NCBI GenBank assembly: GCA_947561715.1
Contig: OX387204.1
Location: 6,577,001-6,641,000, forward strand
DNA from: Ascidia mentula
Taxonomy: Eukaryota; Chordata; Ascidiacea; Phlebobranchia; Ascidiidae
Reading direction: 5' to 3'
DNA: 64,000 nt
Shown here: positions 30,131 through 48,233 of the stretch, in pieces
Layout of the letters: the number at the start of each line of letters is the position of its first letter
How positions within the stretch are numbered: position 1 is the stretch's first letter
Notes under the pieces: model-generated
The model's input: the letters and a program-made list of their open reading frames with translations, nothing else
The model's database searches: none
Told to the model about the DNA's origin: nothing
Position numbers and translations under genes: made by a program

Positions 30131-33100
30131 ATGGTAAGTTAGAAACTTGCTTAAATACTTTGTGAGAATGTTGGTAAAATAAGCAGTTGTTATGTTGTCT
30201 TAGGATATACGAAGTTTCTTCAAAAAGTCATCAAGTGATACGGGCAATGAAGCTGACGATTTTGTAAAAACCAATAAAAAAACTGAACGAAAACGATTGA
30301 GAAAAAAGGGTGTTTTGTTTGATGGTATAGAACTCCTTTGCAGTATAAGCCTCCATATCTGATCTTGCACATGTTTGTTAAGATTCTTCTGATGAAGATA
30401 CACACTCCAAGACAAAGAGTAAGAAGTCAAAGAAACATACCACACCTGATGTGATTGAAAATTCAGGTATGATTTGTGTTTTGTTAAACATCTAATAATT
30501 TTGATGTGAAAAGAACCTAACAAAGAAACCGATAATTTCATAGCTGATGATTTTGATGTGAACATGGCAAACATGTTTATGCTTATGGCTTTAAGTTTTG
30601 CATTTCTACTGAAAATACTGTGGTTTTAAAATAGATGATTATTAAACTATGCTTGTATTGCAGATGATGATGCTAAGCCTGCAAAATCAAAAAAGCTTTT
30701 AAAAACCAAAAAATCATCGAAAGAACTAAAATCAACCACTCCGACCCAATTTTTTGGGCAATTCAAGAACTCCCCTGCAAAACCAAAAGCAACAAAGAGA
30801 AAAGCTGATGATGGCATAGGGAATTTACCAAAAACTCCCAAAAAGGTTCTGTTTGCCTTTGAGTATGTTTTTATTGATACAGTTTGGTGATTCTCTTCAC
30901 GGTTTTCTAGGAGGCAGTGTTTGTTCAAAATGATGACCTTGATGACCTTCTCATGGAGTTACCAACAACTCCAGTTAAAACCAATGGCAAAAGCAGTAAG
31001 TAATTTTGAGATACAGAATGTCTAGAGGTTTTTACTATTGTTCATAAGTGTTGTTTGCTTTTAAAGATACATTATCTGGTAAGCTGTCTCAAGCTGTGAA
31101 CAGGAGGGTCTCCCCAAGAAAAGCAAAGCAAAAGAATGTTGCAACAAAAAATAATGGCTACGAACAACCGTCAGCAATCCAGAAAAGGGGTGAAAGGGGG
31201 TCTGTTACCAAGCAACCATCTCCAGTGAAAGCAAAACCTAAAGAAAAAAAAATGGGTGCTGAAAAACACATCACCAAAACAAATGACAACAGGAAGGTGA
31301 AGAAGGAAGTTGTAGATAAACCCACAACACAAACTCCCAAAAAGAAAAATGAAACTGCAAGTACTGAACAACAATCTAGTGCCAAAAAGGAAAGATTTCA
31401 AAAATATCAACAGTGGCAAAATCGCTCTGGCCCAAAAGCACCTGGGTCCAAAGAAATACCCAAGGTGTATATACTACTATACATAGTGACTTGAAATGAA
31501 AACATATTACCTTAAACTACATAATCCTAGTTTTGTTGGAAAAAAGACAAGATTGTTTATAATATCCACTGATATCAATACAGGGTGCAGATTACTGCCT
31601 TGAAGGATTGACATTTGTTATTACCGGCATCCAAGATTCGCTGACCCGTGAAGAAGTTCAATCACTTGTTGAGAGATATGGAGGCAAAGTGACCACCACC
31701 GTCAGTGGAAGAACGTCGTATTTGATTACAGGAGAGGATGCTGGACAGTCCAAGCTTGCAAAAGTAATTAATGTCTCCGTACTGACTGCATGTAGGGACA
31801 TGTATAAAGATAAATAAGGCTATTGATGCATTTAACTTAATTTCTTTTATGTGCAAAAAAACCATATTGGCGAGCTGCAGACAGGGTGTGTACACACACT
31901 GTTTCGACCTGTAAGGTCTCATCAGTGCAGCTGTTGAAGTGGCACTGTGCTAGCTTCTACACTAGCAGGCACACTAAATTCCACTTCGTGGTACTGTTCT
32001 GGTCGACGTCGATCTGTTGGGTACTCTATACTGAAAACAGAGACGAACCACTGTGGAGCCTCTATTGTAGAAGCTAGCACAGTGCCACTTCAACAGCTGC
32101 AGGTCGAAACAGTGCGTGTACACACCCTGTCTGCAGCTCAATAATTTCTTTTAATCAACAGTTTTGTCCTTTCTTGCAGTGTTAGAACTAAATACCTTAT
32201 GACTTAATTCAAAGTTTAGTGATTGTAAGGGCCTAACAACCTAACAACTTCTTGCAGAATATACCAAGTATTTTTTCAATCTTTTGGAGCATATTTTGTT
32301 GATCTTACAAAAATCGATATCCACTGAATTTTTTAAATTGACGGAATTCGCACCCCTGATTATTTTTCATTTACACAGGCCGAGAAATGCAAAACAAAGG
32401 TGATTGATGAGGATGAGTTCCTAAACCTTATCAAAACACTTCCTGCAAAAAGGTCCAAGTATGAAGTGCCAGTAAATGACAAACCTAAACCTTTAACACC
32501 TCCGAGTAAAAAGACAACTGTTGAAAAAATTTCTAAGAAAAGTGAACCACCCACAGTGACTGCGAAAACGGAAAACAAAAAAATAACTCCTACAACTCTC
32601 AAGAAGGAAAGTCCCCAGAAGTGTGAAAGTTTGATGTGGGTGGATAAATACAAACCGACCAGTGTTAAGCAGATCATTGGTCAACAGGGTGCAAACAGCA
32701 ATGTCCAAAAACTACTGAAATGGCTTCAAAATTGGCATTCCAATAACAGGACTGCCGCTGGTAAAAGTAAACCAAAACCGAAGTTCAGTCCTTGGGGTGG
32801 TGGCGACCCAACAGGGGCTGTTTATAAGGCGGCTTTGTTGTCTGGTCCACCTGGTGTGGGAAAAACTACTTCAGCAACTTTGGTGTGTCAGGTGAGTTCA
32901 TTTAGGGGGAATTATCATGTGGTTGTAATTTTTTTATTTACATTTATAATCCATGGTTTCAACACATGTCAAGCATAAGTGAATTTAAACACTGTATTAC
33001 CAGATAATTTTAAATTTTTGTAGGAACTAGGCATGTCCTATGTTGAGTTAAATGCCAGTGACACCAGGAGCAAAAGAACTCTAAAGGAAGAGGTAGCTGC

Positions 33101-35906
33101 ATCTGTACAGAACACAAGCATTGCTTGTCTGTTTGGGCAAGACAAGGTAAATATAATACTTGTAATAAGCACAAATTTGAGAACAATCACTGCAGGCATG
33201 TAACAATGTATTTACAACTTATTACTTTGTATGCTTAACTCAATGCATATATTTGGCAGACAGCTGCTTCATCGCATCATGACATTCAACATGTGCTTAT
33301 CATGGATGAGGTAGATGGAATGGCTGGAAATGAAGATCGTGGTGGTATGCAAGAACTTATCCAAATCATCAAATCCACCAAAATACCTATAATATGCATG
33401 TGCAATGACAGGTATAAATAAAATCTAATCCTAATAGACCACGATAGGCCCTATGATGTACAATAGTTGCTAGAATTTATTATTTGGCATCATTTATAAA
33501 ACAGAAACACATTAATTGTATATAGGACTAAATGCAATTATGCAGTGCTAAGGCCCGATTCTAATTTGAATGAAGGGCTTCCCAAAAAATGCGCTCTCTT
33601 ACCAACCATTGTTTTGATTTGCGATTCCAACGTCCACGGGTGGAGCAGATTACTGGTGCCCTTATGAGCATTTGCTTTAAAGAGGGTATGAAAGTACAAG
33701 CCCCTGCAGTCCAAGCAATAATCAAAGGCTGCAACCAGGATGTGAGGCAGGTATGGATTTTCAAAAACCATTAACACATGTACATATATGCATTTATTGT
33801 GTGATAAAAATCTATTCACGTTTCTAATAGGTTCTTCACAACATGAATATGATCAAATCAAACAGCAGTTCACTGAGCTATGATGATGCTAAAACACATG
33901 CTGACAAAGCACACAAAGATATTACCTTAGGAATTTTTGACGTTGCTAGAAAGGTAAACAGAACTGATGCCTCATTTGTAAAGTATCATAGATGTGATCA
34001 ATATCTGGTATTTTTTTTATTTTCACTTTTTTTATTTCAGGCAATCAATTTAACTTCAGTTTTAAATATGAACAAAACTTGTATTGTATGTCATGTATTT
34101 ACAGCTGCTGTCATCTGAGTCTGCATCTTTGTCATTGCTGGACAAATCCAACCTGTTTTTCATGGACTATTCTATGATTCCCAAGTTTATTCAGGAAAAC
34201 TACCCACATGTTAACCCATATGCTGCCAAAGGTAAATAACTTTCAACATTGGTAGTGTAGCAAAACATTTTCGGGTTCCTAAAAAAATGGAGTCATCCAA
34301 AATGTCTTCCGGAAACAAATCTAAATTTTAGGTAATTTGAAGCAGCACTTGAAGCTATTAAGCCAAACTGCTGATAGTATTGCCTTCGGAGACCTCATTG
34401 AATCCTCAATACGGCACGACCAGTCCTGGTCAATGCTGCCTATGATGGGGCTTGTATCGACCGTAATTCCAAGCGACTTCATGAGGGGTGGAATGCAGGG
34501 GATGATTAACTTTCCAACCTTTTTTGGCAAACTTTCCACCACTGGTATGTTTTGTTGTATTTTTGGTTCCAACATTTTACTTTCAAAAAGTAGTGGTTGT
34601 TGTTTATAATACATCTTTGTGTCAAACCACACTAAAGTTCTAATTAATATCCAAATATTTTTTTCAGGGAAAAATAAGCGCTTGCTGCAGGAGTTGAAGT
34701 TTCATTCGTCGCTACCAACAAGTGGTATTACAGAAAGTTCATTTAATCTGGATCTGCTTCCGTAAGAAATGTTGTTTAGGCAACATACAATGCTTTATAT
34801 AAATTATGTTTTAGCAAACCTGTTTTTTTAGATATATGCGATGGCATCTCTGCCAGCCTCTGGTGAAACAGAGTAAAACTGGTGAAAGTGAAGTTCCGCT
34901 TGTGACAAAACTACTGAGTGACTATGATTTTGTAAGAGAGGACTTTGACAGTTTGCTTGAAGTTGGACAATACGAGGGCAGACCAAACTACATGAATCAA
35001 GTTTGTTACTTGTTGCAAATTTTGTTTTCATAACTATCTCCAACCCCACCAGAATGAAATGCAGTTATATTATTAAAGATTGTACAACATAGGAACACAA
35101 CTCACTGGTTTTCTCATAATTCTGAGTGTAAAAAGAGACTGGCCCTTATTGCTTTTAACACTGTCATGTTTAAAAGAAGACATTTCAGCAAAAACTTATG
35201 CCATCATCAGTTTGAATGACGCGATGGTGTAGCTCCATGATTATAAGGAGCTGACCAGACTGACGTCGCAGGTAAGGTCGAAACGTCTTCTTTCAAAAAA
35301 AAATTTTTGCCGAAAACGTCTTCGTTTAAACATGACAATGTTAATAGCAATATGGGCCAGTCTCTTTATACTCAGAATTGTACAACATGTTTTTAGAAAT
35401 AAGCAGGGTTTGGCAGCCAGACTGAATGTTTTGTGGATGTTTAGGTGGAGTCGAAAGTAAAAGCTGCATTTACGAGAACTTTTAACAAAGAAAGTCACAT
35501 GATCCCCTATGCCGTTTTGTCTGCAGCTGCAATGAAAAAGAAGCGCAAAGTTTCAAATGATGGTGGGAACTAACTGATTAATATCCCAGTTTAATTGAAG
35601 CTCTTGTCTGAACAAAACTTCTCTTTTATTTTTATCTTGTGTGGCTTCATATATTTACCATCTTGAAAAAATTTTCTCAGGCATGGATCTTGGTGAGGAA
35701 GGTGAAGGCAATGCAGATGACAGTGGGGAAGATAATCTTGACAACGACGGCATGATTAAAGTAACTATACCAAAAAAATCGTTTAGGTTTATGTTAACCT
35801 TCTGTCTCCACAGCAGGCTAAGAAAAAGCCGGCGACCAAAGCCAAGACAGCAAAGAAGTCCACAAGTGGAACTTCGTCAAAACAAGGAAGGGGGAAAAAG
35901 AAATAA
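30131..35906 (+). CDS. RFC1: Replication factor C subunit 1
   Basis: Large subunit of the clamp loader that opens PCNA and loads it on primer-template DNA in the nucleus. Nineteen exons: 30131-30133, 30204-30324, 30383-30466, 30664-30845, 30911-30995, 31067-31464, 31584-31763, 32379-32891, 33024-33146, 33260-33411, 33576-33750, 33831-33953, 34105-34231, 34332-34544, 34668-34761, 34832-35000, 35445-35562, 35681-35760, 35814-35906. The frame closes at 1010 residues (human 1148). The N-terminus MDIRSFFKK matches the PCNA-binding start of RFC1. A BRCT domain lies about 292-380, Walker A (SGPPGVGKTT) near 508, Walker B (MDEVDGM) near 577, then the RFC1 C-terminal domain and a lysine-rich tail. Exon 1 holds only the ATG. 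The donor of exon 4 (gttctg) is weak but the only one that keeps frame. Intron 7 contains a hammerhead ribozyme repeat. Confidence 0.96.
31873..31932 (-). ncRNA. Type I hammerhead self-cleaving ribozyme
   Basis: Read on the minus strand, every invariant part is present in order. Stem I: AGCTGCA (31932-31926) pairs with TGCAGCT (31879-31873), seven perfect pairs. Core CTGATGA (31925-31919). Stem II: GACC and GGTC around loop TTACA (31918-31906). GAAA (31905-31902). Stem III: CAG pairs with CTG and is extended by a GTGTGTACACAC palindrome. Then TC, so the predicted cut falls between 31880 and 31879. The open end is stem I, hence type I. Such ribozymes process RNA of retrozymes, Penelope-like elements and some satellites. 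Here it sits antisense to RFC1, so only antisense transcription would make the active strand. Confidence 0.88.
32068..32139 (+). repeat. Hammerhead arm lacking the catalytic block
   Basis: The right arm on the plus strand reads GCTGCA then GGTCGAAACAG and ends CTGTCTGCAGC. Stems I and III, GAAA and the cleavage-site TC remain. The 16 bases with CTGATGA, one side of stem II and its loop are absent, so this copy cannot fold into an active hammerhead. Confidence 0.8.
35079..35388. repeat. Second palindromic element, RFC1 intron 16
   Basis: Inverted arms (about 35118-35190 and 35306-35379) share blocks such as GGGCCAGTCTCTTT and TTTAAACATGACA in opposite orientation. The element is bounded by 12-base direct repeats ATTGTACAACAT (35079-35090 and 35377-35388), which may be a target-site duplication, although the right copy overlaps the arm end. 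The minus strand has CTGATGA (35210-35204) followed by GAAA (35086-type spacing, at 35186-35183), and the plus strand has GGTCGAAAC near 35276, but no full hammerhead can be drawn. Confidence 0.55.
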
Positions 35907-47946: not shown

Positions 47947-48233
47947 GCAGAAGTAATGCCATGCTTACGCATAGCAAGGCGGGATCGCCCCACTGCGCAG
48001 GCCCTTTATATTTGGCGATCACAGCTCTAATATTCTGATCATAAGGTTCACAGGCTTCGCAGCCAAGGCATTGCAGCCAAGCTGGATCAGCCACTTCTCC
48101 CGACAAGTCGGAGCGAGATCTGAAAAATCAAGCTCCCGGTGAGGTTTGAACTCACGACCCTGGGCTAACCAGGCCCGACGCTCTACCAACTGAGCTACAG
48201 GAGCTCAGTGGCTTCACGGAGTATATTGTGGCC
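47947..48233 (-). mobile_element. tRNA-headed short insertion (SINE-like) with target duplication
   Basis: A 287 bp segment is flanked by AAATAGCATAAG (47935-47946) and AAATAGGATAAG (48234-48245), 11 of 12 identical. Near its 5' end on the minus strand is a tRNA-like sequence. The paralogous position upstream of unit 7 (near 54335-54352) runs ttcttggc to gtggcaac with no such segment, as expected for an empty site. No poly(A) tail is present. It may be a tail-less SINE or another retroposed tRNA-containing transcript. Confidence 0.65.
48131..48204 (-). tRNA. tRNA-like sequence, probably a SINE head or tRNA pseudogene
   Basis: On the minus strand: acceptor stem GCTCCTG with CGGGAGC, A box TAGCTCAGTTGG, D stem GCTC/GAGC, T arm GTGAG-TTCAAAC-CTCAC with a good B box. 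The anticodon arm is irregular: GGGC/GCCC with loop CTGGTTA would give anticodon GGT (Thr), but needs one extra base after the D stem and has a pyrimidine at position 37. I therefore doubt it is a working tRNA. Confidence 0.6.

What the first reader, a model, noticed from the sequence alone, without database searches (positions are those of the whole stretch)
31873..31932. Consensus-perfect type I hammerhead ribozyme in an RFC1 intron
Seen: on the minus strand the order is stem I (AGCTGCA/TGCAGCT), CTGATGA, stem II (GACC-TTACA-GGTC), GAAA, stem III starting CAG/CTG, then TC at the cleavage site. All invariant core positions are present and all three stems pair. Known: type I hammerheads occur in retrozymes, Penelope-like elements and satellites of animals. 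Inference: an active ribozyme marking a small mobile element; being antisense to RFC1, it would not cut the RFC1 pre-mRNA.
Basis: partly seen in the sequence, partly recalled or inferred. Interest (0 to 1): 0.88.

Follow-up and report, generated by a model that had tools for sequence, protein, structure and literature searches.

The report
Sea-squirt ribozyme retroelement inserted head-to-head
The predicted self-cutting RNA is present in sequence and belongs to a common small mobile element of a sea squirt, whose insertions often carry two copies joined head to head between short repeats of the target, the footprint that Penelope-type retroelements leave, which points to them as the machinery that moves such ribozyme elements.

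Summary
The type I hammerhead at 31873-31932 (-) is there as described, but no Rfam model calls it at its curated score, so "consensus-perfect" holds for the core only. It lies in one arm of a 292-bp head-to-head fold-back (31850-32141) with a 12-bp target duplication; the other arm lacks the 16-nt core segment. The host is an ascidian. The element is one copy of a retrozyme family with 682 exact cores, including ~287-nt tandem arrays. Of 90 deduplicated insertions sampled, 41 are head-to-head and none tail-to-tail. Target duplications of 9-15 bp flank 22 of the 41, against 3% in re-paired controls. Reverse transcription starts about +11 or +34 from the cleavage site; 19 of 20 classifiable head-to-head insertions use one of each. 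Penelope-like elements in the genome show the same footprint, and a purified one cleaves and extends both target strands (PMC11167929). Most likely: a retrozyme copied by Penelope-type, two-strand target-primed reverse transcription. Ribozyme activity, RNA circles and the helper are inferred. Retrozymes are known; I did not find head-to-head, paired-start insertion of one described.

The parts
31838..31849 (.). Target-site duplication TAATTTCTTTTA, low end
   Evidence: exact 12-bp repeat, the only two places in the window
32142..32153 (.). Target-site duplication TAATTTCTTTTA, high end
31850..32141 (-). Whole head-to-head retrozyme insertion, 292 bp
31880..32059 (-). Arm A: retrozyme monomer positions 100-287, with the intact hammerhead
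   Evidence: L001:1531-1710
31873..31932 (-). Type I hammerhead; predicted cleavage between 31880 and 31879
31850..31879 (-). Long 3' tail of arm A: 30 nt past the cleavage site (33 in monomer coordinates)
32058..32131 (+). Arm B: retrozyme monomer positions 197-287 in RFC1 sense, lacking CTGATGAGACCTTACA at about 32101/32102 (junction with arm A overlaps by 2 nt)
   Evidence: L001:1709-1782
32132..32141 (+). Short 3' tail of arm B: 10 nt past the cleavage-equivalent site

Best explanation
A non-autonomous retrozyme (a ~287-nt unit ending in a type I hammerhead) was inserted into an RFC1 intron of an ascidian by Penelope-type target-primed reverse transcription. An endonuclease made a staggered cut that left a 12-bp duplication. 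Each of the two target strands primed reverse transcription inside the retrozyme RNA, one about 34 nt and the other about 11 nt past the hammerhead cleavage site. Each cDNA ran toward the RNA 5' end and the two free ends were joined, giving a fold-back with a 3' tail at each outer end. Shown: the anatomy, the duplications, the two start sites, the one-of-each rule, constraint on the ribozyme core, and the same footprint at GIY-YIG/RT elements of this genome. Inferred: ribozyme activity, circular RNA as template, a Penelope-like protein as helper. Arm B then lost its ribozyme core by deletion (inferred).
For: 41 of 90 deduplicated insertions head-to-head, 0 tail-to-tail, 1 mixed; 18 of 55 on the fully sampled contig C1. 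Duplications of 9 bp or more at the outer ends of 22 of 41 head-to-head insertions, 3.2% of 1,204 re-paired controls. One short and one long tail in 19 of 20 classifiable (p 2e-5), while single-orientation insertions are 11 short, 10 long, 2 unclassed. Long tail on the longer arm in 11 of 21, so neither start is always first. GIY-YIG hits: 17 divergent neighbour pairs within 6 kb, 0 convergent, 6 same-direction. L120, L121, L122: 12-, 13-, 12-bp duplications (re-paired flanks 7 in 6 of 6; random 100x100 window pairs reach 11 bp in 3 of 300) and a one-sided extension of 35, 61, 35 nt. A purified Penelope-like protein cleaves and extends both strands and starts internally at two sites (PMC11167929). 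Core constraint; tandem units contiguous over the cleavage site.
Against: No expression or cleavage data. No Rfam hammerhead call at cut-off. No Penelope-like element sharing the retrozyme tail was found among 13 GIY-YIG loci. In PMC11167929 ribozyme mutants still insert, unprocessed RNA is the main template, and start sites did not differ between strands, so neither a ribozyme role nor a one-of-each rule is shown there. 19 of 41 head-to-head insertions have no duplication of 9 bp. Exceptions: L104 has two long tails, L094 is mixed. Tail classes were set after seeing the values; the L015 duplication overlaps tail-like sequence. One genome only.
Confidence: 0.72

Rival explanations
1. Self-priming: one cDNA (or an antisense RNA) folds back on itself at an inverted microhomology and copies itself, as PMC3846280 proposed for head-to-head Penelope elements.
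For: Gives head-to-head arms; partner arms lie below the between-locus median distance in 14 of 17 loci; 7 of 41 junctions overlap by 5 nt or more (HSP overlap against a 1% expectation for exact ambiguity, not quite like for like).
Against: The copy should end where the first strand began, yet the two tails differ in 19 of 20, and the long tail is on the longer arm in only 11 of 21.
Confidence: 0.13
2. L1-type twin priming or another LINE moved the retrozyme.
For: Target duplications and 5' truncation also fit LINEs (recalled); PMC7229834 lists LINEs as possible helpers.
Against: In twin priming the inverted part is the 5' part of the same RNA, not a second copy of the 3' end (recalled); here both arms carry the 3' tail.
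Confidence: 0.06
3. A DNA transposon (MITE) with long inverted ends that happens to hold a hammerhead-like sequence.
For: Long inverted arms with a target duplication.
Against: Single-arm and tandem copies, arm lengths and joints that differ between loci, unequal ends.
Confidence: 0.03
4. Fold-backs are assembly artefacts of chimeric reads.
For: Inverted chimeras are a known artefact of long reads (recalled); no reads were available.
Against: Direct duplications at the outer ends, unequal arms, paired short and long tails, arms diverged by mutation and deletion.
Confidence: 0.02

Closest known systems
Metazoan non-LTR retrozymes (Cervera and de la Pena 2020, PMC7229834, parts 1-3 of 6 and passages seen)
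   Same: Type I hammerhead, 170-400-nt units (here 287), tandem copies, GC below 50% (47%), target duplications above 4 bp.
   Different: Frequent head-to-head insertions with paired unequal tails; the word 'inverted' does not occur in the main text of that paper.
Penelope-like elements (PMC3846280 passages, PMC11167929 main text)
   Same: Insertion footprint: head-to-head arms, ~31-bp tail on one arm, 8-10-bp duplications; two internal start sites; both strands extended.
   Different: No RT or GIY-YIG in the retrozyme; canonical, not minimal, hammerhead with a capped stem III.
RAGATH-1 hammerhead (Rfam RF03152)
   Same: Best Rfam match, whole model, 33.9 bits.
   Different: Well below its cut-off of 56.3.

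Membership tests
Hammerhead ribozyme, type I | Core CUGAUGA, GAAA and UC cleavage site in order | tested here: met
Hammerhead ribozyme, type I | Three helices, II and III capped, I open | tested here: met
   MFE fold; T.C mismatch in helix III; in the family positions 4 and 6 of helix III are mostly unpaired
Hammerhead ribozyme, type I | Rfam curated score (a recognition test rather than a defining feature) | tested here: not met
Hammerhead ribozyme, type I | Covariation in the helices | tested here: inconclusive
   Double changes only at two stem III pairs, 2 of 98 and 1 of 98 sequences; none in stem I
Hammerhead ribozyme, type I | Loop 1-loop 2 tertiary contacts | not tested
   no call
Hammerhead ribozyme, type I | Self-cleavage | not testable with these tools
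   needs transcription in vitro
Metazoan non-LTR retrozyme | Type I hammerhead in 170-400-nt units, tandem in places | tested here: met
   287-288-nt units in L009; 4 of 105 loci tandem, 8 of 105 with at least two long same-strand units
Metazoan non-LTR retrozyme | GC under 50% and target duplications above 4 bp | tested here: met
   47%; duplications of 9-15 bp in 45 of 90
Metazoan non-LTR retrozyme | Linear and circular RNA of unit length | not testable with these tools
   no expression data held
Penelope-like element | RT and GIY-YIG protein | tested here: not met
   292-bp element, too short to encode either; not a Penelope-like element itself
Penelope-like insertion footprint | Head-to-head arms, tail on one arm, duplication of about 8-13 bp | tested here: met
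   same at L120-L122

The most novel reading that the evidence does not exclude
Animal retrozymes are parasites of Penelope-like elements, and their integration is a paired reaction: a two-site, two-strand target-primed reverse transcription in which the two strands must start at different sites (+11 and +34), so the fold-back is the full product and single-arm copies are those where one cDNA failed.
Probability: 0.5. Interest if true: 0.72.

Novelty: new variant of a known kind. Interest (0 to 1): 0.57.

Why it matters
Which enzyme spreads animal retrozymes is open; the 2020 paper names Penelope-like elements as a strong candidate because the two co-exist and share features. A shared, unusual insertion footprint is more direct genomic evidence. 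The one-of-each start rule also links the one-sided Penelope tail and the head-to-head copies in one testable two-strand mechanism, with hundreds of very small natural products in a single genome.

Tried and rejected
Rfam on other copies: no hammerhead at E 0.01 in L009, L069, L025, L015, L111, L115; only mraW and mir-10 matches below cut-off on the L015 fold-back. Covariation: double changes at two stem III pairs only. Rod-like circle: the circular monomer folds at -83.9 kcal/mol, z -1.65, not striking; the -182 kcal/mol of the RFC1 copy comes from its inverted arms. Arms from different RNAs: L073, L015, L017 and L100 looked like candidates; L073 and L015 differ largely by deletions, L017 arms share a private variant, L100 is undecided. 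Retrozyme tail in 13 GIY-YIG loci: none beyond a retrozyme copy at the edge of L122 and matches at E 0.11 or worse. Hidden second arm in single-arm copies: weak matches above shuffles in 8 loci, L037, L038, L043, L060, L062, L063, L077, L084, not counted as head-to-head. Core conservation was not judged on the core-selected loci.

Full report
Observation. Rfam does not call it at curated scores; the best permissive matches are RAGATH-1-hammerhead, 33.9 bits, and Hammerhead_3, 23.7.

The element. The hammerhead lies in one arm of a long inverted repeat: 31872-31911 pairs with 32100-32139 and 31926-31965 with 32062-32101, each 98% complementary. The opposite arm, read on the plus strand, is the same ribozyme without CTGATGAGACCTTACA, that is CTGATGA, the 5' strand of stem II and its loop. 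An exact 12-bp repeat, TAATTTCTTTTA, flanks the whole at 31838-31849 and 32142-32153 and occurs nowhere else in the window. The tails are unequal: 30 nt past the cleavage site on arm A, 10 nt on arm B. The gene is RFC1: a BRCT exon before the element, AAA and RFC1 C-terminal exons after it, all on the plus strand; RFC1 chains in the PDB match. Exon borders were not mapped.

Host. The window lies in a 195.8-Mb, 79-contig assembly. COX1 on contig C79 reads with glycine at AGR codons under table 13 where other animals have glycine (comparison recalled), the ascidian mitochondrial code. The species was not identified.

Family. The whole element matches 138 places in the 40 scored of 1,686 candidates. 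The core CTGATGAGACCTYACAGGTCGAAAC occurs 346 + 336 times, 0 + 0 for the reversed control; 100 places are listed. 94 have C at the variable site. A C1 array has units of 287-288 nt from cleavage site to cleavage site. In 21 independent loci found by overall similarity, the 11 core sites differ from the reference in 12 of 394 cells, the body in 240 of 2,619 (Fisher p 9e-6), stem III and loop in 92 of 767; 25 of 34 ribozymes are intact, 35% expected at the body rate (several ribozymes share a locus). The core is constrained; activity is not shown.

Architecture. I took all 68 loci of contig C1 with an exact core (82 places; 66 loci fetched, plus L009 and L017) and 37 others: those found by similarity, close pairs, and five single places on C2. 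L002, L003 and L007 (same array as L009) and L029 (COX1) were left out. Mapped on one genomic monomer, the 105 loci give 51 head-to-head, 49 single, 4 tandem, 1 mixed (L094). After collapsing loci that share any flank, 90 remain: 41 head-to-head, 44 single, 4 tandem, 1 mixed, 0 tail-to-tail; C1 alone 55: 18, 34, 2, 1, 0. Joint positions differ between loci, so the joints mostly arose at insertion and not by copying one fold-back.

Target duplications. Exact repeats of 9 bp or more flank 22 of 41 head-to-head and 23 of 49 other insertions; re-paired head-to-head flanks reach 9 bp in 3.2% and 11 bp in 0.25% of 1,204 trials. An earlier run with narrower flanks, before deduplication, gave 35 of 106 clusters against 0.9%.

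Two start sites. 23 head-to-head insertions with a repeat of 9 bp or more were measured (22 independent plus L034, which shares a flank with its group but has its own duplication). In 20 both tails fell in a class: 19 one short (5-19 nt) and one long (25-48 nt), 1 two long (L104), 0 two short; the other 3 had one long tail and one outside the classes. Binomial p 2e-5; without L034 it is 18 of 19. Of 23 single-orientation insertions 11 were short, 10 long, 2 outside. The classes were set after seeing the values, and the L015 repeat overlaps tail-like sequence. So each site serves alone about equally often, yet in pairs it is one of each. The long tail lies on the longer arm in 11 of 21, which argues against self-priming from a fixed first start. 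Of 41 joints 7 overlap by 5 nt or more and 15 have gaps over 3 nt.

Helper. GIY-YIG hits (121 listed, 150 of 382 candidates scored) have 17 divergent, 0 convergent and 6 same-direction neighbour pairs within 6 kb. L119 carries an RT match above the Pfam cut-off and L115 one below it; L115 and L111 carry GIY-YIG. L120, L121 and L122, each with two divergent GIY-YIG hits, show 12-, 13- and 12-bp repeats at their ends and a one-sided extension of 35, 61 and 35 nt; their re-paired flanks give 7 bp in 6 of 6, and random window pairs reach 11 bp in 3 of 300. In PMC3846280 (passages) rotifer Penelope elements have inverted pLTRs, an optional ~31-bp tail on one of them, 8-10-bp duplications and mostly head-to-head order, explained there by self-priming on an antisense template. 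In PMC11167929 (main text section) a purified lizard Penelope-like protein cleaves and extends both strands and starts internally, the tail being the stretch between two start sites; that paper also finds no difference in start site between strands, insertion without ribozyme activity, and unprocessed RNA as main template, which does not support a ribozyme role or my pairing rule. PMC7229834 (parts 1-3 of 6 and passages) names Penelope-like elements as a strong candidate for moving retrozymes; PMC7761336 and PMC8969392 (passages) say much the same.

Reading. The simplest account is Penelope-type, two-strand, two-site target-primed reverse transcription of retrozyme RNA. Copies with a tail read through the cleavage site, which fits a re-ligated (circular) or an uncut template. 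One RNA or two per insertion is undecided: partner arms lie below the between-locus median distance in 14 of 17 loci, but are often no closer than the nearest other locus.

Consequence for RFC1. Read in RFC1 sense the intron carries a ribozyme arm without its core. Whether that deletion was selected or is ordinary decay of a palindrome cannot be told; L073 and L015 also have deletions in one arm.

In print. Head-to-head retrozymes did not appear in the search listings or in the passages read. Type I hammerheads are listed for another ascidian, Didemnum (9 loci, PMC8704543, passages). Two papers I looked for by id (recalled as Cervera and de la Pena 2014 and Craig et al. 2021) are not held, so prior description cannot be excluded.

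Noticed in passing
35079-35388: A second head-to-head fold-back in another RFC1 intron: 12-bp repeat ATTGTACAACAT at both ends, inverted arms 35118-35379 (71%), 27-30 nt extension on one side, and CTGATGA on the minus strand at 35204-35210. Unlike the retrozyme in sequence; its family has 113 matches in 40 scored of 717 candidates. Rfam finds no hammerhead there.
   Followed up: partly
L069 (C1:18855600-18858800): Divergent tandem arrays: two units one way and three the other, joined head to head, with an 11-bp repeat at the outer ends.
   Followed up: partly
L094:815-1178: The one mixed arrangement (+, -, +), perhaps nested or neighbouring fragments.
   Followed up: partly
L015, L073 left arms: Similar 12-nt deletion between GCTAG repeats in one arm of two unrelated fold-backs, besides other deletions.
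   Followed up: no
48131-48204 (-): Ordinary tRNA-Thr (GGT) gene.
   Followed up: no
L122:2323-2400: A retrozyme copy lies at the edge of a GIY-YIG locus.
   Followed up: no
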